IMG/VR virus record: IMGVR_UViG_3300025879_000023
Location: 1 to 61,886 of that record
Strand: one strand, 5' to 3'
DNA length: 61,886 bases
DNA from: a virus
Made by a program: the position numbers and the translations under genes. The notes below the pieces were generated by a model. The model saw only the letters and a program-made list of their open reading frames with translations. It was not told where the DNA came from and did not search any database. Position 1 is the first letter of the stretch. Each line of letters opens with the position of its first letter. Shown piece after piece: positions 5,148 through 51,041 of the stretch.

Positions 5148-6545
5148 ATGGCAGCATCAATAGAAGTATCATACTTTAATTCGTTTTGGTTAAAACAGGT
5201 TCGAGATACAAATAGCGATGCTGTTTGGCCAGACGGTTATCCATACCAAAGTTCGTTTCCAGGTACAGCTGTAAATGGAGATAACAATTGGTTTATTGAA
5301 GAATCAAGAATTAGGGGAGGATATAATAATACTCAAGTAGATTTAGGTGTAAAAGCGTATATAGTTGAGGAGGAGTCAAAACAACAGCATAGATCAAACG
5401 CTTTAATATATTCAGGTATATTTAATTCAAGAACTGGAATTAATAATACAAATCAATTTTCAGTCGGCGAAAGCATCACAAAGGCTACTGATCCAGCTAA
5501 TGGGTCAATACAAAAGTTATATGCTGAAGATACAAATTTAATAGTATTTCAAGAAAATAAAGTAAGTAGAGCATTAATAGATAAAGACGCTATATATTCA
5601 GCCGAGGGTAATGCTTCGGTAACATCAACATCTCTTGTAGTAGGACAAATAGTGCCTTATGCTGGTAATTTTGGTATTAGCAGAAACCCTGAAAGTTTTG
5701 CTGTTTATGGTTATCAAAAATATTTTGCAGATAAAGATAGGAATGCTATTTTAAGATTGTCTATGGACGGTATAACGGAAATATCTAATTATGGAATGTC
5801 CGACTTTTTTAGAGACAATTTAAGTGATATAGGAGAATATGGCAAAATTGTTGGTGGTTATGATATACATAATAAAAACTATACAATTTCACTGCAAAAA
5901 ACAGCGGCTTTACAAAACAACCAAGATGATCCGTCTAACTATGCTACTTTAAGTTTCGATGAATTAGTAGGAGGCTGGAGCAGCTTTTATACCTACAAGC
6001 CTACGGGTATGACCAGCTTAAAAAATAAATTTTTTAGTTTTAAAAACGGAGTTATATATAAGCATTATGCTGATACAAATGGAAACAATAGAGGTTATTT
6101 TTATGGTTCTTATTCTCCATCAAATATAACTTTTGTGTTTAACGAAAACTCTTCAACTTCTAAAAATTTCCAAACAGTAAATTATGAAGGCGACAATGGC
6201 TGGCAAGTTACAAGTTTTTCTTCTGACCAACAAAAATATGATAATGTAAATGGTGGCTGGTTTAGTTATGACGATACAACAGCTCAAGTGCCAAGTTATA
6301 GTCAAACATATAATGATGGCGGCGTAATTTATAGATTAGGTTTTGATAGAAAAGAAAACAAATATTTTGCTAATTTAATAAACAATAGCCCAGCTAGAGA
6401 CGGGGAGGTTGTTTGGGGTAATGAAATGTCCGGTATTAAAGGATATTTTGCAACCGTTACATTTTCTACGGATGCTATTACAGATATTGGCGGCGCTAAA
6501 GAATTATGGAGCGTTGGATCAAAATTTGTAGTATCTTCGTATTAA
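5148..6545 (+). CDS. Tail 'muzzle'-type protein, C-terminal part
   Basis: 465 residues, starting 29 bases after the preceding gene. The segment with IRGGYNNTQVDLGVKAYI, HRSNALIYSGIFNSRTGIN and KLYAEDTNLIVFQENKVS is the conserved half of the muzzle/stabilisation protein of crAss-like phages, which I know usually as one polypeptide together with the N-terminal signature found in the gene before. Later residues hold beta-propeller-like strands (ILRLSMDGITEISNYG). It most likely assembles with the product of the preceding gene in the tail. Whether the two chains reflect an ancestral split or an insertion cannot be decided here. Confidence 0.6.
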   Translation: MAASIEVSYFNSFWLKQVRDTNSDAVWPDGYPYQSSFPGTAVNGDNNWFIEESRIRGGYNNTQVDLGVKAYIVEEESKQQHRSNALIYSGIFNSRTGINNTNQFSVGESITKATDPANGSIQKLYAEDTNLIVFQENKVSRALIDKDAIYSAEGNASVTSTSLVVGQIVPYAGNFGISRNPESFAVYGYQKYFADKDRNAILRLSMDGITEISNYGMSDFFRDNLSDIGEYGKIVGGYDIHNKNYTISLQKTAALQNNQDDPSNYATLSFDELVGGWSSFYTYKPTGMTSLKNKFFSFKNGVIYKHYADTNGNNRGYFYGSYSPSNITFVFNENSSTSKNFQTVNYEGDNGWQVTSFSSDQQKYDNVNGGWFSYDDTTAQVPSYSQTYNDGGVIYRLGFDRKENKYFANLINNSPARDGEVVWGNEMSGIKGYFATVTFSTDAITDIGGAKELWSVGSKFVVSSY

Positions 6546-6555
6546 ACAGCAAAAA

Positions 6556-7002
6556 ATGAAATTAAGTCAATTTTATAAAAAATTAGAAAATCTTCAAGAT
6601 GTTATTATAGCAAATAATGATAAAGAAGGTTTATACGGCGATGGTAAAAGCTTAGTTAATAACGAAGACTTTCCTATTACACATGATTTCTCAGATCAGT
6701 TGTATATGCGTAAAATGGAAATGAAAGCTGGAAGTATAGTTGTTAGTGCAATACATCATACCGATCATTTTTGGTTTTTATTAAAAGGCAGAATAATTGT
6801 TAATGATTGTGGCGAAGTAGTCGAGCATATTGCTCCATGCTATGAAAAGTCAAAAAAAGGAGCTAAGCGATTAATTCACTGCGTTGAAGATTGCTTATTT
6901 ATAAATGTACATAAAAATCCAACGAATACAGAAAACATGGAGGAAATAGAAGATTTTTTATACTCTATGACTCTGGAGGAATATAAAGAAAAAAACAAAT
7001 AA
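6556..7002 (+). CDS. Cupin-like small structural or accessory protein
   Basis: 148 residues. Residues 50-118 have the pattern of a single cupin barrel: AGSIVVSAIHHTDHFWFLLKG, then a strand-turn-strand ending with AKRLIHCVEDCLFINVHKN. The HH-T-DH cluster could bind a metal, but a catalytic role is not evident. Cupin-like proteins of this size are common in marine podovirus tail modules. It lies between the muzzle gene and the ejection-type protein with 10 and 1 base gaps, so it is co-transcribed with the tail. Function unknown. Confidence 0.5.
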   Translation: MKLSQFYKKLENLQDVIIANNDKEGLYGDGKSLVNNEDFPITHDFSDQLYMRKMEMKAGSIVVSAIHHTDHFWFLLKGRIIVNDCGEVVEHIAPCYEKSKKGAKRLIHCVEDCLFINVHKNPTNTENMEEIEDFLYSMTLEEYKEKNK

Positions 7003-7003
7003 T

Positions 7004-7723
7004 ATGGCAGGAATTCTAGCAGCTGGTATTGGTGCCGGTGTATCTTTATTAGGGGGTATATTTGGTGCTTCAAAAGCTAAAAAACAAGCAAAAGCAGCTG
7101 ATAAGCAAAGAAAAATAGCGGAAGCTAAAATAAACCATTTAGAAAGAACAAGGCAGCCAATTGTAAATCCATATGAGAGTGTTACAAATGTTAGCGGTCT
7201 TGCTACTGATTTAAGCGGTCAATTAAGTAATCCTTTCGAAAGTTTAGGTGTAGCTACTCAAGCGGCTGAAATGCAAATTGAAGAAGCAGATATAGCTTTA
7301 GCAAATACTTTAGACACAATTAGAGCTACTGGGTCTGGGGCTGGTGGCGCAACCGCGTTAGCGCAAGCTGCCTTACAAAGTAAAAAAGGTGTTTCTGCAA
7401 GCATTGAACAACAAGAAGCTCAAAACGAAAAATTAAGAGCTCAAGGAGAAAGCCAATTGCAGCAAGCAAAAATGGCAGAACAGCAAAGAGTGCAGGGTGT
7501 TCAAATAAGTGAAGCACAAAGAGTGCAACAAGCAGAAGCAGCTGGAAAGCAATTTATGTTTGGAGCTCAAGAGCAAAGAGACGTTGCAAAATTAGATAGA
7601 CTGTCTGGTCAAGAAAGCCAAGCAAGAGCCAATGTAGCTCAAGCAAATCAAGCAGGCGCTGCAGCATGGAGCGGCGCAATAAGCTCTATCGGCGGTATAG
7701 CCGGTTCATTAGCGGGAAAGTAG
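7004..7723 (+). CDS. Internal/ejection-type protein, zero-frame product
   Basis: 239 residues. The N-terminus is a glycine- and alanine-rich hydrophobic segment (ILAAGIGAGVSLLGGIFGA, residues 3-21), followed by a long alpha-helical region rich in Q, A, E and K (residues 25-60 and 85-215), and a second small hydrophobic Gly/Ala segment near the end (residues 220-237). Two membrane-seeking segments flanking a long helix are typical of podovirus internal core or ejection proteins such as T7 gp14. The following cargo-type gene supports this. The last codons hold a GGGAAAG slippery heptamer with a hairpin just after the stop, so a longer 276-residue product is expected (separate entry). Function is inferred from architecture only. 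Confidence 0.6.
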   Translation: MAGILAAGIGAGVSLLGGIFGASKAKKQAKAADKQRKIAEAKINHLERTRQPIVNPYESVTNVSGLATDLSGQLSNPFESLGVATQAAEMQIEEADIALANTLDTIRATGSGAGGATALAQAALQSKKGVSASIEQQEAQNEKLRAQGESQLQQAKMAEQQRVQGVQISEAQRVQQAEAAGKQFMFGAQEQRDVAKLDRLSGQESQARANVAQANQAGAAAWSGAISSIGGIAGSLAGK

Positions 7724-7833
7724 CAACCCCAAGCGCGGGGTTAGACATTAATAATAAAGCACTAGAAACATATAGAAATCCTAGTATATATTCAACAGGT
7801 AGCGCCAGTAATGATTATGGTTCGTTAAGTTAA
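7004..7833 (+). CDS. Predicted -1 frameshift product of the ejection-type protein
   Basis: If ribosomes slip back one base on GGGAAAG at 7714-7720, translation bypasses the TAG at 7721-7723 and reads 37 further codons (7720-7830) to a TAA at 7831-7833, giving a 276-residue product. The extension (VATPSAGLDINNKALE... ending in NDYGSLS) is hydrophilic and fully open, and it fills an otherwise unexplained 120-base gap before the next gene. The overlap of a short and a long form would resemble the lambda G and GT tail assembly proteins, which use the same heptamer. Protein evidence is lacking; the call rests on the site, hairpin and open frame. Confidence 0.6.
7714..7742 (+). promoter_or_regulatory. 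Programmed -1 frameshift site with hairpin
   Basis: Seen: in-frame codons GCG GGA AAG TAG give the heptamer G GGA AAG (X XXY YYZ). It is followed after 4 bases by AACCCC (7725-7730), loop AAGCGC and GGGGTT (7737-7742), a 6-bp GC-rich stem that is rare in this AT-rich genome. Known: GGGAAAG is the slippery sequence of the lambda G/GT genes. Inferred: the hairpin stimulates slippage. Confidence 0.65.
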
Positions 7834-7843
7834 ACAAAATAAA

Positions 7844-9409
7844 ATGAGTTATAGAAATCCAGAAATAATAACTGATAAGTCAGGAGAAATATTAGCACAG
7901 GGCTTTGCGTCGTTTGGCCAAAGTATGGCTGCTGGTGTTACTAAAGCTATTCAAAGAGCTGATGAAATAAAAAGACAAAGAAAAGCTGATACTTTGCGGC
8001 TTAATAAGTTGGATACCGACATTAAAATTCAAGGCGCTAAAAAAGCAGCGGAGTTTAAATCTAATCTACCTAAGACATCTTTAAACACAAAGCTTAATCC
8101 TATTATAGACCAAAGAATTAAAGCTGCTGGAGACGCTCAAATGGCTTTATATAATGAATCAGATCCTGAAGTAAGAAGCCAGCTTTTAAAAGTTATTCAA
8201 GACGCTGATAGTTTTTTAGTAAACACTGGAGCTTTTTTAGAAGATTTAAAAAGCGAAGCAGCTGCTTTTAGAGAAAGAAAAAGCGGAGGTTTAAATAAAC
8301 AATGGGGTGTTAACGGGATTGACGAACAAGATCGAGTTAATAAATTTGGTTTATTAAGCGTGCTCTCAGGCGAAGCTGAGGGTGATATAGATTTGGAATT
8401 TGATACAGAGTCAAATTCATTAAATTTAAATGCTTACGGTAAAATTGGAGAGGAAAGCTGGAATGTTAACGGATTTAATAGCAATAATTATTTAGCATCG
8501 GGCAGCGAACTATTTCATGAAATACCCCAAATGTTAGAAGAAAGCATAACTGCTTCTACAAAAATTATAACTAATGATAAAGGCGAGCTATTGCCAAATG
8601 TGGTAGGAAAACCTGTTACAAAAAGAATATATCAAGATGTTGTTAATGATAATGATCAAAAAATAGGTAGAAAACTTGTTGAAGGTCAAATTGAAGAAAT
8701 TAATCAATCAGCAATAGATAATTTAATTAAAAAAGAAATTTCTTCGTCTGTAGCTGGATTTAATGCCGCAGCTCCTTTGGATCAAAACGCAATTTTTTCA
8801 TATGAATTGGATGCTCCGTATAAAAGTTATAGTGATTTTTTAGAAAAAGTAAAAGACCCAAAAGAGCAAGATAAGATCCTTTATCAAATGTTCAAAGAAA
8901 AAACAATTGAGGGCATTGGCGAACAGTTTCAATCATACGAAAAAGACGGTCAAAAAGTTTATTTTAGAGCAGTAACTCCTTTAAAAGAGGTTAAAGCTGA
9001 AAAACCTGAAAAAACAACTAAATTAACTAAGGATGATAAACTTGATTTAAAAGTTCAAGAAAATTTAACAAAAGCAGATAACATTTTAAAATGGGAAGGT
9101 GTAGACGATATGAGCTCGCCTATATCTAAAAGTTTAGCTAATGTTGATTTCGAATCTTTAGTTGGTGATGAATTAGGATTAAAAGCTACTCCTTTAAATG
9201 ATAAAGATAGCGGAGAGCAAATTGGTTGGACTATTTTAAATCCAGACTTAAAGCAGTGGGGTCAAGATATTCTTTTTGAAGAAACAATTCCACAAATAAA
9301 TAAAAAAATAAAGCTAGCTATTGGTTCTAATTGGGCTGGATTATCAGAAGATCCTACAGCTAAAACAACAGCAGCTGATCTTATACAAAAATACTCACAA
9401 AGTAATTAA
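7844..9409 (+). CDS. Cargo/internal virion-type protein of unknown function
   Basis: 521 residues. The N-terminus (about 60 residues) is helical and basic, with a hydrophobic patch (ILAQGFASFGQSMAAGVTKA). A long helical region follows (residues 60-150), then a mixed acidic region. I recognise no enzyme motif. The position between the ejection-type gene and the giant polyvalent gene matches the cargo proteins that crAss-like phages package in the tail and deliver with DNA. The ATG at 7844 follows an A-rich leader and lies 10 bases after the end of the frameshift extension. A virion location is inferred from context only. Confidence 0.5.
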   Translation: MSYRNPEIITDKSGEILAQGFASFGQSMAAGVTKAIQRADEIKRQRKADTLRLNKLDTDIKIQGAKKAAEFKSNLPKTSLNTKLNPIIDQRIKAAGDAQMALYNESDPEVRSQLLKVIQDADSFLVNTGAFLEDLKSEAAAFRERKSGGLNKQWGVNGIDEQDRVNKFGLLSVLSGEAEGDIDLEFDTESNSLNLNAYGKIGEESWNVNGFNSNNYLASGSELFHEIPQMLEESITASTKIITNDKGELLPNVVGKPVTKRIYQDVVNDNDQKIGRKLVEGQIEEINQSAIDNLIKKEISSSVAGFNAAAPLDQNAIFSYELDAPYKSYSDFLEKVKDPKEQDKILYQMFKEKTIEGIGEQFQSYEKDGQKVYFRAVTPLKEVKAEKPEKTTKLTKDDKLDLKVQENLTKADNILKWEGVDDMSSPISKSLANVDFESLVGDELGLKATPLNDKDSGEQIGWTILNPDLKQWGQDILFEETIPQINKKIKLAIGSNWAGLSEDPTAKTTAADLIQKYSQSN

Positions 9410-9417
9410 ATAAAATT

Positions 9418-12400
9418 ATGAACGAATTAGAGCAAATAGTTCAGAGAATGATTGATGCTGGTGAATCAGAAGAAAACATAGCACTAGTAATAAAAGAGTA
9501 TAACAGCAAAACTTTACAGCCTTCTGAAAATGTGGGAAAGCCAGAAAGCCAAGGACTGGGTGCGCCTGTGGCGGAAAATGCAGCACCCGAAATTCAGCTA
9601 ACCGATACGGTTTCGCCATCGGCAGGTGGTTCTTTGGAATTACCAACCACTAAAGCTTATAGCATTGATGGCAAAAAGGTAACAAAAGAAGAATTTGATA
9701 ATTATACAAAAGAGCAAGAAAAAAAGAAAGAAATTGCTAAAATGAGCTTTATTGATAAGCTTAAAGTTGATTTAGCTAAAGGAAGTGTTAGTTTAGGTGA
9801 AATGTTTGCGTCAGTGCCTGAAACTATATATGATATAGCTTCATTGCCTCAAAACTTATTAGCAAAAATACCTGGTTTAGAAAAATTAAAAACTAGTTCT
9901 AAAGATTTTAAAGAGACAATTAATGTAGAAAATCCTATATTAGAATATTATTCTCAAGAAAAAGAGGAACTTGAAAAAGTGCAGAACATATATAACAATG
10001 CGAATTACGATACGCAAGGCATATATGAAAACTTTAAAAAAGGAAATTATTCTGATGGATTTAAACAGCTTGCTAGCGGCATAACCGAGAGTGCTCCCGT
10101 TAGTATATCTATGATGGTTGGTGGCGCAACTACTTCTATTGGTAAACTTAGTGCTGGCGGCACTGTGGTATTTGCTGGGCCAGAAATTGCAACTCAAAGA
10201 GAAGAAAAGCCAGAGCAATCAGAATTTGCAAATGTAATAAAGGGATTAGGTCTAGCAGCAGCAGAGACCGTATATAGCTCTATTGGTACAGGTACAATAG
10301 GTAAGGTATATAAAGACATATTACTTAGAGAAGGTAAAGAAGAAGGAGTTAAGGTATTTAGAAAAGGGCTGGTAGACATGTATTCTACTGCTTTAAAAAA
10401 GTTCGGCGCCCCAGCAGCGATGCTTGGAGAAGGCGTGGAAGAAGTAGCCACAACTATTACGCAGAACATGATAAACGAAAAAAACCCATTTGAAAATGTA
10501 GCTGATTCCTTTATACAAGGAGTTGGTGGTGGAGGCATATATGGGGCTCCGATAAACACTGCTCAAGCCATATCTGGAGTTAAAGACGGTATTACCAATA
10601 TAAAAATAAATAAAGAATTAAAAAATTCAAGCTTTAATAATATAGTAGACGCGTTTAAACCAGGAGCTAAATCCGAAGAGGCAACTATTAATGTTTCTAA
10701 AATTAAAAACGTTACTTCTGTATTTGACAAAAAAGTTAATTTAGAGGTTGAAAATGGAAACATTACAGAGTCCGAAGCTTATGACACTAAATTAAATTTT
10801 AGAAAAACACAACAAGCTGTAAACAGGCTTAAGCCGTTAGAATTTTCTTCTACTTTTGAAACAGAAGCTGTGGACTTGTTAAAAGAAAAAGAAAATTTAT
10901 CTAATGAAATAAAAGAAATTAACGATCCAAGTTTAACAGTTGTTCAAAAAACAAAATTAGAAACAATAAATAACAGGTTAGAAGAGCTTGTTATCGAAGA
11001 TTCTAAGACAAAAACAAAAGTAAAAGGCGAAGAGGATATTGCTAAGGCTAAAAAAATAGCAGAAGCTTTGCCTGAAGAGTTAAATCTTACTATAGAAGAT
11101 TTTGAAACTACAGCTGAGCTACAAGAAGCTTTGCAAAAAGAAGGCAAAACAGAGGGCGAAGCAAAAAAATTGTCTGATTCTTTTGGTTTTATTGTGCAAA
11201 AACCAAATGGTGGACCTCAAAAAATATATATAAACAAAGAGGTTGCTTTTAATTCTGGCGTGGCCACTACTGCTCAACATGAAGTTTTGCATGCTGTTTT
11301 AAGAAAAGCTATACCTGGTAACATTGAATTAGGAAAAAATTTAAAAGATTTTGTAGAGGAAATTGCCGGGGATAAATTCATGAACACTGAATTTGCTCAA
11401 AGGTTTGAGGCTTATGAGTTAGAATATGATAATACATTAAATAGTTTAAATACAGAATTAGATAGCGGAGCTATATCACAAGAAAAATACGAAACTGAAT
11501 CGCAAAAAGCATTAAGTAATTTATGGGAAGAAACTATGCCTTTGCTTTCAGAATCCATTACAAATGGTGATATTGACGTAAAGTCATCTATATGGGAAAA
11601 ATTAAAAGATTTTTTAAATAGAGTATTTAATACTTCTAATATTAAAAATGTTAAGTTTGATTCAGGTAAAGATGTATTTAATTTTGTAAAAGATTACAAT
11701 AAAATATACAAGACTGGAAAAGGCATTAAGACTCTTTCTAAAATAGCAAAAGGGGATATAGAAGGTAAGCTTGTAACAAATCAAGAATCAAAAATAGATG
11801 AAGTTATTAAATCATCTGTAGGTGATTTAGCATCAAGTAGAGTTCAACAAATATACGATGAACAAGGTGTTGCGGGAGCTATGGATATTGTTGATGAGTA
11901 TAAAGGTATGGCGGCTAAAATTGCCGCGGTATACAGAGATAGGCCTGGGTTTGAAACGTATAAAGAAGATTTAATAGATGGTATTTTAAACGATCCAACT
12001 TACGGGGTTTTAGGGTTAACTTTAAAATATAAGCCAGAAGAAAACAAAGGAGTGCCTTTGGCTGCTTATATTAATAAATATTTGCGACCTAGAAGTATTA
12101 CTTTAGCTAATCAACTTTTAGGCAAAGACGAAGCAAGTACATTTAAATCTGATATTACAGAAGTAAAAGATGTAATGGCTACAGAAACAGCAGAGGATGC
12201 TATTACTGCTTCTGAAGAAATTGCAAAAGAAAAACCTGTTAAAAAGAAACCTAAGCTTAGGGAATCTATTAGGCTAGACTCTGAGCTTAATGAAAAATTA
12301 AATAACGCATTACAAAAAGCAATTGCTTTAAATATTAAAAAATTTGATCAAGCTAAAGGGCAGAATCAAACAATATCCCCATTTGTAGCCGATGTTAAAA

Positions 12401-15400
12401 TAGACCTAGCCGAGCTTCTTGAAAAAGACGTAGTCAAATTAATAAAAAGCCAAGGTGTTGAAAATTTTTTAATAGAAAACAGAGAAGCTTTACTTGATAA
12501 TCTTACTACAACATTTTTATCTAAGCATCCGTTTTTTAGAAAAGGTATACTTAAAAGAGTAAAAGGAGAATGGGTCGCTCCGACTAAAGTTAGCACGTAT
12601 AAATACGATTGGATTAACGAAAAAACAGGAGATAAACTTAAAATAGATAGAGATAATGCAGCTGGCAGAGGTTTAACTTCTGGCCCTGAGTTTATTAAAA
12701 GAAATCCAAAAATAAAAGAAATATTAAAAGAAAATGAATTTGTAGATTATCATTTTCAAGATGGTGCTTTAAGAAATAAAATTAAAACAAATCCAGTTAA
12801 TTCTATTGCTAGACAAATATCTTCAGAATATGGCTTAGAAGTTCTGCAAGATGATTTACTTACGGAAGGGCCGTTAACAAAAGCTATTTCTGAAAGAGCA
12901 GATTTATATGGCATTGTAGTAGCTAAAGCAAGTGCTGAAAAGGCAGCTAAAGATATAGACAGGGGATTAATTAAATTCTCTATGTCAACCGCTCGAGTTG
13001 CGGATTCTGTTGTTAAAGGATATTTAAAATCTACTGACGGTATTAATTCTAAAGAATATAAAGATTATATAATCAGTCTTGGCAAAGATGGTAGTTATAT
13101 AGATGATTTAATTCAAAATAATTTATGGATTACGGAGCTTCTTCAAAACGAAAAAGCGGCTAATAAAGGATTAAAATATGAAAAGGTAATTGAAAGATTG
13201 CTTAATTCAACAATAAAAGAATCTGTAAAAGATTTTAAAGTTAAAATTTTAAAAGACCCTAAGCAAGGAGGTTTTTCTTCTAAAGGAAAAGGTGATTTAT
13301 CAATAGCTTTTAAAGACGTAATAGCAAATATTGAATTAAAATTAAATTCTGAAGCACAATCCGGAAGTTTTACTATAAAAAATATTGGCGAACAAAAACC
13401 AATTGAGGTAACAAACAAAAAAACAAGCTATCTTAAAGAAATGCAAGATGCTGTTGATAGTAAAGAATTTAAAGATGGTATTGCTAATTTTTTAAAGAAT
13501 GCAAAAGCAGAATTAAAAAGGCAAGGGTTTGATCCAAAAGAATATGATACAAGTAAGTTTCCTGTAGATCTTCCTAAAAGTGTAATGGAATCAATTGAAA
13601 AAACTGGTTTAAGTTTTAATATAGATCTTGAAAACTTAAATGAGATTATTGATTTTTATTCTAATAAAGGCGTCAACTATATTCAGATCGGAGATAAAGG
13701 ATTATTTTCAATTGGTAAGGATGTTCTAGGACTTGGTATTATGGCTCCAAGTTTACGTGGAAAAGGACAAATAAGGGTTAGAATGTTATCTTCTAACAAA
13801 GGAAAAGATATTAGATCGCAAAGATTTAGAGCATTTTATAACTTTACAGAAGTTAATACTCAAGATGGAGGTTTAACATTAGATAAACCGGATGACATTA
13901 AATTAATGTTAGAATCTGGCATTGATAATATAAAATTTTCTAAATCGATGGAGGCAACTCCTGAGGTAGAAAACTCTATGAATACCACGTTTAATAAAAT
14001 TATTGAACGTAAAAAAGGCGTTCTTGCAACTGAAACTATTTCAAAAGCAACAGCTAAATTAGCTGGTCAAAAAGAAGGTAGATTTAAATTATTTGTTCCG
14101 CCAACTGCTGATGATTTATTAGGTTTAGTATATAACTTTTTAGGAACAGGCAAGCAAGGAGATGCTGATATGCAATTTTTTAATGAAAAATTGTTTAGAC
14201 CATTAGCCAGAGCAAATTTTCAATTAAATGCTGAACGACAAGCTATAAAGCAAAGATGGCAAGAAGTTGTAAAATCAAATAAAGGCATTACCAAGGTTCT
14301 TAGGAAAGAAAGTGACTATAAGTTTTATACAAATGACCATGCTGTTAGAGCGTGGATGTGGGATAAACTTGGTTATGATATTCCTGGAATAAGCGAAACA
14401 GACAAGGCAGCATTAATAGAATCAGTTAATTCTAGTGAAAAGCTTTTAAAATTTGGAGAAGAACTTATAGATGTTCCAAACAAAAAAGAAAGCTGGTTAA
14501 AACCAGAAGATGATTGGACGGCTAGTACGGTTGAAATGGATCTTCAAGAAATACTAAGTAAAATTGGTAGAGCTAGAATATTTGAAGAGTTTATTACAAA
14601 TTCTGATATTATATTTTCAGAAGGTAATTTAAATAAAATTGAAGCAGCCTACGGTCCAAAATTAAGAGGAGCATTGGAAGATATGCTTTATCGTATTGAA
14701 AAAGGTAGAGCAAGAAATGAAGGCGGGAATAAAATGGCTGCGGCATATTTAGATTGGGTCAGAGGCTCGGTGGCTACAACTATGTTCTTTAACACAAGAT
14801 CAGCATTGCTTCAACAACTTTCTATTGTTAACTTTACAAACTGGGAGGATAACAACATATTTGCTCAGGGTAAATTTATCGCAGGGAGCCCTAAAACGTA
14901 CGCAAAATATTGGACTGATATATTTAATTCCGATTGGATGAAAGAGCGTAGACAGGGCTTAAAAACAGATATAAACGAGTCTGAGCTTGTAGCTAAACTA
15001 GAAGGAAGCAAAAACAAAAACAAAGCTTTATTAGCTTATATTTTAGAAAAAGGATTTTCACTTACTAAATATGGAGATAATATCGCAATAGCAACCGGCG
15101 GAGCGCCGTTTTTGTATAACAGAGAACAAAAGTATATTAAAGAAGGCATGACGCCTGCTGAAGCAAAAAAAGAAGCATTTTTAGATTTTCAAGAATTAGC
15201 AGAAAGCACACAACAATCTTCAAGACAAGATTTATTGTCAAATCAACAGGTTAGTGTTATTGGCAGGATATTTTTAGCTTTCCAAAACACGACTATGCAA
15301 ATGACCCGCTTACAAAAGAAAGCTGCTTTAGATTTAATAAATAAAAGAGGTAGCTTTAAAGCGAATATATCAAGGCTTGTTTACTATGGCGCAATCCAAA

Positions 15401-16056
15401 ATACTATATTTTCTTTCTTACAAAGCGCTTTATTTGCTGGTGTTTTTGGAGATGATGAAGATGAAAATTTAAAACTAGATGATAAAACTTTAAGAGCTGC
15501 TAATACTGTACTCGATAGTGCATTAAGAGGATCCGGTATTGGTGGAGCAGCATTAGCTACATTAAAAAATGCAATTATTGCATGGGCAAAAGAAAATGAT
15601 AAAGGTTGGAAAGCTGATAATTCAAAAGTAATTATTGAATTACTAAATATTTCTCCAGCTGTTGGTATTAAGGCTAGAAAAATTAACACAGCAATGAATG
15701 CTTATAAATATGGCAACAAGGTAGTTGATGATGTTAGCTTTGCTAATCCAAATCACCCTTATTACGGTATTGCTGGAAGTTTAACTTCAGCAGCATTTAA
15801 CATACCATTAGATCGAGTTGTTACAAAAGCGCAAAACCTGCAAGCTTTAACAAATCAGGAAGCAGAAGCATGGCAACGTACAGCTCTATTTTTAGGTTAT
15901 AACACTTGGGATGTTGGATTAAAAGATCCTGAAATTGAAGCAGCTAAAAAATCTGCTAAAAAAAGTAAATCATCAAGCAGAACATCGGGCAGAACATCCG
16001 GTAGAACATCCGGTAGAACATCCGGTAGAACATCAGGAAGAAGCTCAAATAGATAA
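9418..16056 (+). CDS. Giant polyvalent internal protein with HExxH metallopeptidase motif
   Basis: 2212 residues, the largest gene. The region about 205-390 has several Gly/Ala-rich hydrophobic stretches (SISMMVGGATTSIG, GGGGIYGAPINTA) that could cross or perturb membranes. HEVLH at residues 621-625 is a zincin-type HExxH motif, preceded by TTAQ, suggesting a peptidase domain. Residues about 810-910 (IVDEYKGMAAKIAAVYRDRPG... LAAYINKYLRPR) match a helical domain I associate with large polyvalent phage proteins. Residues about 1780-2050 form a conserved helical C-terminal region (RGSVATTMFFNTRSALLQQLS). The tail is (RTSG)x5. This is the usual style of virion proteins injected with the DNA. No RNA polymerase catalytic motif was seen. 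Peptidase activity is an inference. Confidence 0.6.
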   Translation: MNELEQIVQRMIDAGESEENIALVIKEYNSKTLQPSENVGKPESQGLGAPVAENAAPEIQLTDTVSPSAGGSLELPTTKAYSIDGKKVTKEEFDNYTKEQEKKKEIAKMSFIDKLKVDLAKGSVSLGEMFASVPETIYDIASLPQNLLAKIPGLEKLKTSSKDFKETINVENPILEYYSQEKEELEKVQNIYNNANYDTQGIYENFKKGNYSDGFKQLASGITESAPVSISMMVGGATTSIGKLSAGGTVVFAGPEIATQREEKPEQSEFANVIKGLGLAAAETVYSSIGTGTIGKVYKDILLREGKEEGVKVFRKGLVDMYSTALKKFGAPAAMLGEGVEEVATTITQNMINEKNPFENVADSFIQGVGGGGIYGAPINTAQAISGVKDGITNIKINKELKNSSFNNIVDAFKPGAKSEEATINVSKIKNVTSVFDKKVNLEVENGNITESEAYDTKLNFRKTQQAVNRLKPLEFSSTFETEAVDLLKEKENLSNEIKEINDPSLTVVQKTKLETINNRLEELVIEDSKTKTKVKGEEDIAKAKKIAEALPEELNLTIEDFETTAELQEALQKEGKTEGEAKKLSDSFGFIVQKPNGGPQKIYINKEVAFNSGVATTAQHEVLHAVLRKAIPGNIELGKNLKDFVEEIAGDKFMNTEFAQRFEAYELEYDNTLNSLNTELDSGAISQEKYETESQKALSNLWEETMPLLSESITNGDIDVKSSIWEKLKDFLNRVFNTSNIKNVKFDSGKDVFNFVKDYNKIYKTGKGIKTLSKIAKGDIEGKLVTNQESKIDEVIKSSVGDLASSRVQQIYDEQGVAGAMDIVDEYKGMAAKIAAVYRDRPGFETYKEDLIDGILNDPTYGVLGLTLKYKPEENKGVPLAAYINKYLRPRSITLANQLLGKDEASTFKSDITEVKDVMATETAEDAITASEEIAKEKPVKKKPKLRESIRLDSELNEKLNNALQKAIALNIKKFDQAKGQNQTISPFVADVKIDLAELLEKDVVKLIKSQGVENFLIENREALLDNLTTTFLSKHPFFRKGILKRVKGEWVAPTKVSTYKYDWINEKTGDKLKIDRDNAAGRGLTSGPEFIKRNPKIKEILKENEFVDYHFQDGALRNKIKTNPVNSIARQISSEYGLEVLQDDLLTEGPLTKAISERADLYGIVVAKASAEKAAKDIDRGLIKFSMSTARVADSVVKGYLKSTDGINSKEYKDYIISLGKDGSYIDDLIQNNLWITELLQNEKAANKGLKYEKVIERLLNSTIKESVKDFKVKILKDPKQGGFSSKGKGDLSIAFKDVIANIELKLNSEAQSGSFTIKNIGEQKPIEVTNKKTSYLKEMQDAVDSKEFKDGIANFLKNAKAELKRQGFDPKEYDTSKFPVDLPKSVMESIEKTGLSFNIDLENLNEIIDFYSNKGVNYIQIGDKGLFSIGKDVLGLGIMAPSLRGKGQIRVRMLSSNKGKDIRSQRFRAFYNFTEVNTQDGGLTLDKPDDIKLMLESGIDNIKFSKSMEATPEVENSMNTTFNKIIERKKGVLATETISKATAKLAGQKEGRFKLFVPPTADDLLGLVYNFLGTGKQGDADMQFFNEKLFRPLARANFQLNAERQAIKQRWQEVVKSNKGITKVLRKESDYKFYTNDHAVRAWMWDKLGYDIPGISETDKAALIESVNSSEKLLKFGEELIDVPNKKESWLKPEDDWTASTVEMDLQEILSKIGRARIFEEFITNSDIIFSEGNLNKIEAAYGPKLRGALEDMLYRIEKGRARNEGGNKMAAAYLDWVRGSVATTMFFNTRSALLQQLSIVNFTNWEDNNIFAQGKFIAGSPKTYAKYWTDIFNSDWMKERRQGLKTDINESELVAKLEGSKNKNKALLAYILEKGFSLTKYGDNIAIATGGAPFLYNREQKYIKEGMTPAEAKKEAFLDFQELAESTQQSSRQDLLSNQQVSVIGRIFLAFQNTTMQMTRLQKKAALDLINKRGSFKANISRLVYYGAIQNTIFSFLQSALFAGVFGDDEDENLKLDDKTLRAANTVLDSALRGSGIGGAALATLKNAIIAWAKENDKGWKADNSKVIIELLNISPAVGIKARKINTAMNAYKYGNKVVDDVSFANPNHPYYGIAGSLTSAAFNIPLDRVVTKAQNLQALTNQEAEAWQRTALFLGYNTWDVGLKDPEIEAAKKSAKKSKSSSRTSGRTSGRTSGRTSGRTSGRSSNR
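15979..16038 (+). repeat. Five tandem 12-bp repeats encoding RTSG
   Basis: Five adjacent copies of AGAACATCnGGn encode (Arg-Thr-Ser-Gly)5 at the C-terminus of the giant protein; the three central units are identical. A multiple of three keeps the frame when copy number changes. The other frame reads EHPV repeats, which is only a shadow. Confidence 0.9.
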
Positions 16057-49484: not shown

Positions 49485-51041
49485 ATGTCAGACGCAATTG
49501 TCAAGAACCTAAGTTTCGGTAACGAAGCTAAGGACAAAGTATTTGAAGGTATCACAAAACTCACAAAAGCCGTTAGCTCCACGCTCGGGGCTAGCGGTAA
49601 ATGTGTGATGCTTGAAGATGGAAATGGAAGACCAATAATAACAAAAGACGGTGTAACAGTAGCAGATAGTATTATACTATTAGATCCTGTTGAAAATATG
49701 GGGGCAACGCTTTTAAAAGAAGCTGCTAGAAAAACCGTAAGCGAAGCAGGTGACGGCACAACAACCGCAACTGTATTAGCGCACTCTATACTAACTGAAG
49801 CTTACAATGTAGCCGATAAAATTAGTTCAAGAGATTTAAAAATAGGTATAGACAACGCTGTTGAAAAAGTAGTTAAATACTTAGAGTCAATTTCAGTTGG
49901 TGTACAAGGAGATATGATAGATCAAATAGCTACTATCTCTACAAACAATGATTCTGAATTAGGTAAAATTATAGGTGATGCCTTTAGATCTGTTGATGAA
50001 ACAGGTGTAGTTATGATGGAAACATCGTCGAATGGTTCTACAGAAGTAGAAATAGTAGATGGAGTACAATATAACAAAGGATTAACGAACTCTCATTTTG
50101 TAACAAGCAAAAGTCAAAGAGTTGCTGAATTAGAAAACCCTTACGTGTTATTAGTTGAATCGCCAATAGATAACATAAGACAAATTCAAAGCGTGCTAGA
50201 GTTTGTTATAAAGGGTAATAAGTCTTTACTTGTAATAGCCGATGTAGACCAGCCAGTACTTGCAACTTTAGCAATGAATAAAGTTAAAGGTAATTTAAAG
50301 ATCAATGTTATTAATGCACCCACGTATGGTGTTGCTAAAAAAGAAACATTAGATGATCTTGCAATGCTAACAGGCGCCACTATTATAAATGAAGACTTAG
50401 GAGATGATTTAGATTTAATTAATCCTCAATACCTAGGCTCTTGCATAAAAAGTGTAACTACAGACGAAGAAACAATATTACAAGTTGGAGAAGTTTCAGA
50501 AGAGGTTCAAAATACTATAAAAGGTATTAAAGAAAAACTACTGACAACTACTGAACCACATGAAGTGGTAAAACTTGAAAGACGATTAGCAAGACTTGCA
50601 GCTAAAATAGCTATAGTAAAAGTTGGTGCTAATTCTGAAATAGAATTAAAAGAAAAGAAAGATAGAGTAGAAGATGCTATATGCGCAACTAAAGCCGCAA
50701 TTAAAGAAGGTATTGTACCTGGTGGTGGAATTGCACTGTTAAACGCATCGGAAACAGTTAAAGCTAAATCAATAGGTGAAGAAGCTTTGTTAGAGGCTAT
50801 TAAGGCGCCGTTTAAGACCATTTTAGAAAACGCAGGTATAGAGTATCAAGAATCTCTTAGAGGCAAAGGAATGGGTCTAAATGTGATAACTGGTAAAAAG
50901 GTTAATATGATCAAACAAGGTATTATTGATCCATTATTGGTTACTAAAAGTGCATTAAGAAATGCTGCCTCGGTTGCTACAACTATTTTATCTACTGATT
51001 GTGTAATTAATAACTTAAGGATTAATGAAGGCAATAGGTAG
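49485..51041 (+). CDS. groEL: Phage-encoded GroEL chaperonin
   Basis: 518 residues. Folds capsid or other virion proteins in an ATP-driven ring. ATP-site residues kept: ITKDGVTVA (D55), GDGTTTATVLA (89-99), RVEDAICATKAA with its Asp, GGGIALL, and IIDPLLVTKSAL near the C-terminus. Shorter than E. coli GroEL (548) and lacking the GGM tail; it ends NNLRINEGNR. The order groEL-groES is reversed relative to the usual groES-groEL, and they overlap by 17 bases. An apical domain differing from host GroEL is expected to choose phage substrates. Confidence 0.95.
   Translation: MSDAIVKNLSFGNEAKDKVFEGITKLTKAVSSTLGASGKCVMLEDGNGRPIITKDGVTVADSIILLDPVENMGATLLKEAARKTVSEAGDGTTTATVLAHSILTEAYNVADKISSRDLKIGIDNAVEKVVKYLESISVGVQGDMIDQIATISTNNDSELGKIIGDAFRSVDETGVVMMETSSNGSTEVEIVDGVQYNKGLTNSHFVTSKSQRVAELENPYVLLVESPIDNIRQIQSVLEFVIKGNKSLLVIADVDQPVLATLAMNKVKGNLKINVINAPTYGVAKKETLDDLAMLTGATIINEDLGDDLDLINPQYLGSCIKSVTTDEETILQVGEVSEEVQNTIKGIKEKLLTTTEPHEVVKLERRLARLAAKIAIVKVGANSEIELKEKKDRVEDAICATKAAIKEGIVPGGGIALLNASETVKAKSIGEEALLEAIKAPFKTILENAGIEYQESLRGKGMGLNVITGKKVNMIKQGIIDPLLVTKSALRNAASVATTILSTDCVINNLRINEGNR

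What the first reader, a model, noticed from the sequence alone, without database searches (positions are those of the whole stretch)
7714..7742. Lambda-type -1 frameshift site in an ejection-type protein
Seen: G GGA AAG in frame directly before TAG, then a 6-bp AACCCC/GGGGTT stem four bases later, and an open -1 frame of 37 codons to 7833. Known: GGGAAAG is the slip site of lambda G/GT. The extension accounts for an otherwise empty 120-base gap. Use in an internal/ejection-type gene rather than a tail assembly chaperone would be unusual.
Basis: partly seen in the sequence, partly recalled or inferred. Interest (0 to 1): 0.75.

Follow-up and report, generated by a model that had tools for sequence, protein, structure and literature searches.

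The report
Frameshift-added tail on phage ejection-type protein
A group of viruses of bacteria appears to make ribosomes slip backwards just before a stop signal, so that some copies of a protein thought to be carried inside the virus particle gain an extra tail; the pattern looks real and recurrent, but no experiment has been done.

Summary
In detail: ORF 7004-7723 ends GCG GGA AAG TAG with G_GGA_AAG in the slippery frame, a 6-bp hairpin 4 nt downstream, and a -1 frame open for 37 codons to TAA 7831-7833. Of 243 distinct family members (window included), 23 carry a -1 tail of 15-38 codons, 18 of these with a canonical heptamer starting within 13 nt of the stop; one more has a +1 tail. A gap of 45 nt or more to the next gene occurs in 26 of 238 members, and 24 of the 26 are these loci. 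Nineteen members fetched later held four tails, all with a heptamer. Tails are under purifying selection in the -1 frame, one is fused in frame in a relative, and in 16 of 23 no start codon lies upstream in that frame. Programmed -1 frameshifting is very likely. The gene sits where internal/cargo proteins lie in podoviruses; the 'ejection-type' label is plausible but rests on gene order and weak homology. Efficiency and tail function are unknown. A new variant of a known kind.

The parts
7004..7723 (+). 0-frame gene: 239-aa helical, Gln/Ala-rich internal/cargo-type protein, short form; stop TAG 7721-7723
   Evidence: family alignment A1; AlphaFold model mostly helical, mean pLDDT 75, pTM 0.40
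7714..7720 (+). slippery heptamer G_GGA_AAG in frame, directly before the stop
   Evidence: 18 of 243 members have a canonical heptamer with a -1 tail
7725..7742 (+). putative stimulatory hairpin, AACCCC-aagcgc-GGGGTT, 4 nt after the heptamer
   Evidence: p=0.003 by shuffles; 7-bp version in L001
7720..7833 (+). -1 frame tail, 37 codons VATPSAGLDINNKALETYRNPSIYSTGSASNDYGSLS, then TAA
   Evidence: dN/dS 0.12 against L001 over 36 codons
5148..6545 (+). upstream muzzle-like gene (Pfam crAss_MUZ and crAss_MUZ_C)
   Evidence: homologues mostly in flavobacterial phages
6556..7002 (+). gene between the muzzle-like gene and the frameshift gene; matches short tail fibre families
7844..9409 (+). next gene, 521 aa, in the position of T7 gene 15 / crassvirus cargo 2
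   Evidence: gene order only
9418..16056 (+). 2212-aa giant internal protein candidate, in the position of T7 gene 16 / phi38:1 gp101
   Evidence: gene order only; no homologue found in the phages collection

Best explanation
The gene makes two proteins from one mRNA. Most ribosomes stop at TAG and give the 239-aa short form. A minority slip back one base on G_GGA_AAG, helped by the hairpin and perhaps by a slowly read TAG, and add a 37-residue polar tail. Shown by sequence: the heptamer, the hairpin, the conserved -1 reading frame, and recurrence of this design in other relatives. Inferred: that slippage happens, at what rate, and that both forms enter the virion. The protein is most likely a DNA-ejection/cargo protein of a podovirus of Flavobacteriia or other Bacteroidota. 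I infer that the tail is a docking segment at the C-terminal tip, needed on only some copies, so that the slip rate sets the ratio of tailed to untailed subunits; this last step is the least certain (about 0.4 on its own).
For: Twenty-three of 243 distinct members have a -1 tail and 18 of these a canonical heptamer starting within 13 nt of the stop: ten GGGAAAG, one GGGAAAC, two GGGAAAT, one GGGAAAA, four AAAAAAG. A gap of 45 nt or more before the next gene occurs in 26 of 238 members, of which 23 are -1 tails, 1 is a +1 tail, and 2 are gene-call or indel artefacts by my reading. Nineteen later members held four tails, all with a heptamer at -7 or -10, one of them on a Bacteroidetes MAG contig. 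Hairpin 3-8 nt downstream for the 18 heptamer loci: mean score 10.9 against 3.8 +- 1.05, 0 of 300 shuffles as high. Third-position changes are in excess in the -1 frame: 57 of 118 over seven disjoint pairs, binomial p 5e-4 (counts, test). L085's -1 tail is fused in frame in L088, E 2.6e-9. TAG ends 15 of 23 frameshift genes against 22 of 219 others. No ATG, GTG or TTG lies in the open -1 stretch upstream in 16 of 23.
Against: No protein, ribosome-profiling or reporter data. Three of 18 heptamer loci have no simple hairpin (L030, L203, L350), and L007, L042, L230, L144, L228 are matched by 12-28% of shuffles; none of the five non-canonical loci has a hairpin above chance. The L030/L203 pair shows no constraint (dN/dS 1.47, only six differences). 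In the window itself an ATG at 7666 in the -1 frame leaves an internal start possible. None of 11 inspected isolate homologues has an out-of-frame tail, though six of them have a CCCTTT-type heptamer near the stop without one. Homology to T7 gp14 was not found and to crAss001 gp45 it is weak.
Confidence: 0.85

Rival explanations
1. The tail is a separate small gene with its own start, translated by reinitiation or from an internal ATG.
For: In the window and L001 an ATG lies 18 codons upstream in the -1 frame; 7 of 23 members have some ATG, GTG or TTG there.
Against: 16 of 23 tails have no ATG, GTG or TTG in the open -1 stretch upstream, and in L298, L058, L209, L144 and L228 that frame is closed 2-5 codons before the stop. 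Tails of the same kind are fused in frame in L088 and, more weakly, L023. It would not explain the heptamers.
Confidence: 0.05
2. Assembly error, or a recent one-base indel that broke a longer gene.
For: Single-base shifts are common artefacts, and the tail is fused in frame in some relatives.
Against: The same design recurs in 22 other distinct loci of the first set and 4 of 19 later ones, with slippery sites at a fixed place and mostly different tails. The window-L001 pair differs at 14 tail positions yet keeps the frame.
Confidence: 0.02
3. Frameshifting occurs but the protein is not an ejection protein, for example a scaffold or minor tail component.
For: No Pfam or PHROGs hit at 1e-3 for the window protein; no T7 gp14 similarity; Foldseek found no match at E 0.001 or better.
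Against: Gene order muzzle, small gene, this gene, mid-size gene, giant gene matches phi38:1 and resembles T7 and the muzzle-cargo order of crAss001. phi38:1 gp99 matches the family profile at 91% probability, and phi18:3 gp120, a tblastn homologue of gp99, is annotated from MS/MS of virions.
Confidence: 0.2
4. The tail is displayed outside the particle as a variable decoration, like frameshift extensions of coat proteins.
For: Tails are diverse among relatives and rich in Thr, Ser, Gly, Asn and Pro, GRAVY -0.28.
Against: The carrier's gene sits in the internal-protein block, not with the capsid gene.
Confidence: 0.12

Closest known systems
Phage lambda gpG/gpGT tail assembly chaperone frameshift
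   Same: -1 shift near the end of a short gene, two products in a fixed ratio (30:1 in lambda), heptamer of the highly shift-prone G_GGA_AAG type (passages of PMC5009743; that lambda itself uses GGGAAAG is recalled).
   Different: Lambda gpG and gpGT are not in mature virions and act on a tape measure protein. Here the gene lies between a muzzle-like gene and large internal-protein candidates, and isolate homologues are annotated virion proteins.
T7/T3 gene 10 and Listeria A118/A500/PSA coat and tail frameshifts
   Same: A virion protein gains an alternative C-terminus by recoding; -1 and +1 are used by different relatives.
   Different: Those are coat or major tail proteins; several extensions are Ig-like, T7's is not. 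Here the carrier is an internal/cargo-type protein and the tails are short, polar and of several families without detected similarity to each other.
phi38:1 gp99 family (Cellulophaga, Flavobacterium, Tenacibaculum, Maribacter phages)
   Same: Gene order and distant sequence similarity.
   Different: In 11 inspected isolate genes the next annotated gene starts within 6 nt and there is no out-of-frame tail.
crAss001 cargo protein C1 (gp45)
   Same: Directly follows the muzzle gene; weak profile match (62%, 57 columns) over the region holding its predicted transmembrane helix.
   Different: gp45 is 842 aa; the word frameshift does not occur in the paper's main text.

Membership tests
programmed -1 ribosomal frameshifting | X_XXY_YYZ heptamer in the 0 frame near the overlap | tested here: met
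   18 of 243 members with a tail, plus 4 of 19 later ones
programmed -1 ribosomal frameshifting | downstream stimulatory RNA structure at about 3-8 nt | tested here: met
   window p=0.003; the 18 heptamer loci together exceed 300 of 300 shuffles, but L030, L203 and L350 lack one
programmed -1 ribosomal frameshifting | -1 frame under coding constraint | tested here: met
   dN/dS 0.09-0.61 in 10 of 11 pairs, 1.47 in L030/L203
programmed -1 ribosomal frameshifting | no independent initiation of the downstream frame | tested here: inconclusive
   no upstream start in 16 of 23 members; the window has an upstream ATG in the -1 frame
programmed -1 ribosomal frameshifting | both products detected | not testable with these tools
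   needs proteomics or a reporter
lambda G/GT tail assembly chaperones | lies just before a tape measure gene in a long-tailed phage | tested here: not met
   neighbours are a muzzle-like gene and 521-aa and 2212-aa genes in podovirus-like order; no search for a tape measure gene elsewhere was made
lambda G/GT tail assembly chaperones | not part of the mature virion | tested here: inconclusive
   distant isolate homologues are annotated virion proteins; the window phage is untested
phi38:1 gp99 virion proteins | sequence similarity | tested here: met
   hhalign 91%; hmmsearch 19 bits, best of 220 shuffled sequences 8.7 bits
phi38:1 gp99 virion proteins | gene order muzzle - small gene - X - mid-size - giant | tested here: met
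T7 gp14 internal virion proteins | sequence similarity | tested here: not met
   hhalign probability 0.3%
crassvirus cargo protein C1 | sequence similarity along the protein | tested here: inconclusive
   62% over 57 columns of an 842-residue protein
DNA ejection proteins | leaves the virion with the DNA and enters the envelope | not testable with these tools
   needs experiment

The most novel reading that the evidence does not exclude
The C-terminal tip of this ejection protein is a fast-changing cassette whose dosage is set by recoding: lineages repeatedly switch the tip between absent, fused in frame, -1 shifted by a heptamer, -1 shifted at a stop codon, and +1 shifted, so that only a set fraction of the subunits in each ejection complex carries a host- or partner-specific tail.
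Probability: 0.35. Interest if true: 0.75.

Novelty: new variant of a known kind. Interest (0 to 1): 0.62.

Why it matters
Recoding in tailed phages is described mainly for tail chaperones, coat and major tail proteins (passages seen). A family that uses it in an internal, ejection-type protein, with the tail in several states among relatives, gives a natural series (none, fused, -1, +1) for asking why a phage would want only some subunits extended. It also shows that short-form gene calls in these phages miss coding sequence, since the tail is unannotated space unless the slip is recognised. If the protein is indeed ejected, the heptamer would be a stoichiometry control on an ejection complex that can be tested directly by mutation.

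Tried and rejected
The phages collection searched with the window protein plus tail gave no match, nor did the 2212-aa protein. Pfam and PHROGs gave nothing for the protein at 1e-3; scanning all 62 aligned members gave only scattered weak hits. PDB by profile gave one chance-level hit, E 0.34, and Foldseek of the model found nothing at E 0.001 or better (mostly coiled-coil look-alikes). T7 gp14 similarity was not found.

A 50-nt folding test was weaker than the positional hairpin test: mean z -0.78 for 23 frameshift loci against 0.02 for 220 controls. The raw energy difference there is confounded by AT-rich intergenic controls, so I rely, whose score and spacer range I chose after seeing the sequences. 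In one search heptamers in frame 1 (30 of 243) exceed those in frame 0 (24); I read this as codon composition, and used codon shuffles as the control for that reason. The tree is a FastTree of 218 rows with many weak branches; 18 changes of state is a rough figure, and the tool's own table counted the two label groups separately at 5 changes each against rows of the other group.

Papers: passages seen of PMC10172136, PMC10885494, PMC5009743 (300,000 of 475,107 characters held), PMC10386132, PMC9022992. Other listed papers were seen in search listings only. That frameshifting in an ejection or internal virion protein is not in print rests on the searches and 81 of this open-licence library only; the two T7-like genome papers listed were not opened, and subscription papers were not searched.

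Full report
What is there. The ORF at 7004-7723 ends ...GCG GGA AAG TAG. The heptamer GGGAAAG (7714-7720) is in the slippery frame, G_GGA_AAG, and touches the stop. Four bases after it comes AACCCC-aagcgc-GGGGTT (7725-7742). The -1 frame then runs 37 codons to TAA 7831-7833, and the next gene starts at 7844.

Relatives. Six scans of IMG/VR with members of the family gave 423 loci, many of them repeats of the same contig. With the window that is 424 items; 11 ran off the contig end and 170 duplicated a stop context, leaving 243 distinct ones, or 217 clusters by shared 11-mers. Of the 243, 23 carry a protein-like -1 tail of 15-38 codons after the stop. Eighteen of those have a canonical heptamer starting 7, 10 or 13 nt before the stop: ten GGGAAAG, one GGGAAAC, two GGGAAAT, one GGGAAAA and four AAAAAAG. 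Five lack one (L061, L131, L298, L209, L232). By my reading four of these have a P-site codon that can re-pair one base back with the stop codon in the A site (T_TTT_TAA or TAG, G_GGG_TAA, A_AAG_TAA); L232 (GGG AAG TAG) is less clear. One more member, L236, has a +1 tail of 39 codons after GGG TAA C. I picked the 23 by eye from lists of -1 ORFs and heptamers, so the next tests matter more.

Tests against chance. (1) Frame-0 heptamers in the last 16 nt: 24 of 243 observed, 4.5 +- 2.3 expected from shuffling the last 40 codons, maximum 11 in 200 shuffles; 22 of 217 against 3.9 in cluster representatives. Of the 24, 19 have a -1 ORF of 14-60 codons, against 40 of 219 without a heptamer; most of those 40 look to me like the next gene read out of frame. 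(2) Gap to the next gene, found for 238 of 243: median 104 nt in the 23, 13 nt in the 215 others. Gaps of 45 nt or more occur in 26, namely the 23, L236, and two (L239, L048) that I read as gene-call or indel artefacts. (3) Control ends: among 770 other stop-to-stop ORFs of 150 codons or more in the same loci, 62 had a heptamer, 7 a gap-filling -1 tail, none both. These are mechanical ORFs, not curated genes. (4) Out of sample: two more IMG/VR scans and one GTDB scan, with the rule already formed. The 134 newly numbered IMG/VR loci gave 6 open, 119 duplicates and 9 new; with 10 GTDB loci that is 19. Four had a gap of 45 nt or more or no next gene in reach (L433, L487, L497, L517), and all four carry a heptamer at -7 or -10 and a -1 tail of 24-31 codons. 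Among the other 15, one (L432) has a heptamer and no tail. L433 is on a contig binned as a Bacteroidetes bacterium.

RNA structure. With a simple score (helix of 4 bp or more starting 3-8 nt after the heptamer), the 18 heptamer loci average 10.9 against 3.8 +- 1.05 in shuffles, 0 of 300 as high. The five non-canonical loci do not exceed chance: 244 of 300 shuffles as high. The window has p 0.003 and L001 p 0.007, with one more base pair in L001. L030, L203 and L350 have none. Three of the four later tails have a helix at spacer 4 (L487, L497, L517; p 0.036, 0.010, 0.110), L433 none. I set the spacer range after looking at sequences, so the p-values flatter the result.

Coding constraint. Window against L001: 36 codons, 4/1/9 changes at codon positions 1/2/3, dN/dS 0.12. 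Over 11 pairs dN/dS is 0.09-0.61 except L030/L203 at 1.47 with six changes. Over seven disjoint pairs 57 of 118 changes fall in third positions, p 5e-4. The -1 tail of L085 is fused in frame in L088 (81% over 16 residues, E 2.6e-9), and tails of L298, L209 and L007 resemble the in-frame end of L023 (E 5e-5 to 0.02). In 16 of 23 members no ATG, GTG or TTG exists upstream in the open -1 stretch. The window is not one of those 16: it has an ATG at 7666.

Stop codon. TAG closes 15 of 23 frameshift genes and 22 of 219 others, p 8e-9, not corrected for relatedness. That a slower reading of TAG favours slipping is inference.

What the protein is. The window holds a large terminase and a portal gene and a muzzle-like gene at 5148-6545 (Pfam crAss_MUZ), whose homologues lie in 89 phage records, of which 86 bear the names Flavobacterium, Cellulophaga, Tenacibaculum or Maribacter. 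Gene order muzzle, small gene, this gene, 521 aa, 2212 aa is that of phi38:1 gp97-gp101 and resembles T7 genes 12-16. In crAss001 cargo gp45 and gp46 follow muzzle gp44. The family profile matches phi38:1 gp99 at 91% and the gp45 transmembrane region at 62%, but not T7 gp14. phi18:3 gp120, found by tblastn from gp99, is annotated from MS/MS of virions; my profile does not reach it directly. The AlphaFold model is nearly all helix with low pTM (0.40). 'Internal, probably ejection-type' is the best label, at about 0.75-0.8.

How it likely works. The short form is the default product; slippage gives a tailed minority. The short forms end in a fairly hydrophobic stretch (last 25 residues GRAVY 0.56), while the tails are polar (-0.28). 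On a tree of 218 rows the frameshift state changes about 18 times, and near neighbours of frameshift members may have no tail (L140, L164, L004) or a fused one (L088). Fourteen of 243 members carry instead a long in-frame C-terminal domain ending in DVEFK, none of them among the 23. The C-terminal tip is thus a variable site, and recoding is one way of fitting it to some copies. That it docks to a partner is my guess.

Known or new. The mechanism is ordinary -1 frameshifting as in lambda G/GT and T7 gene 10 (PMC5009743 passages). My paper searches found no report of it in an ejection or internal virion protein; they cover only an open-licence library. Membership of the lambda-type chaperones fails on gene context. 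I call it a new variant of a known kind.

Noticed in passing
L236 stop context (contig 3300034409_000004; L237 comes from a second contig with the same match figures): A +1 frame tail of 39 codons follows GGG TAA C, in a relative near the -1 member L232 on the tree.
   Followed up: partly
L397, L210, L369, L116 and others, C-termini: Fourteen of 243 members have DVEFK within the last 15 residues, after a roughly 70-residue in-frame domain starting SDRRLK or similar; it looks like an S74-type chaperone domain (recalled), but Pfam gave no hit.
   Followed up: partly
window 7771-7781 and 7850-7860: The 11-mer TATAGAAATCC occurs in the tail and at the start of the next gene, giving YRNP in both proteins; a small duplication or chance.
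   Followed up: no
window 49485-51041: Phage-encoded GroEL-type chaperonin (PF00118, phrog_5725).
   Followed up: no
L434, L435, L438, L440: Family members on contigs binned as Aliivibrio, Ilumatobacteraceae and Woesearchaeota MAGs, probably misbinned phage contigs.
   Followed up: no
window, end of ORF 9418-16056: The 2212-aa protein ends in a repeated RTSG run.
   Followed up: no
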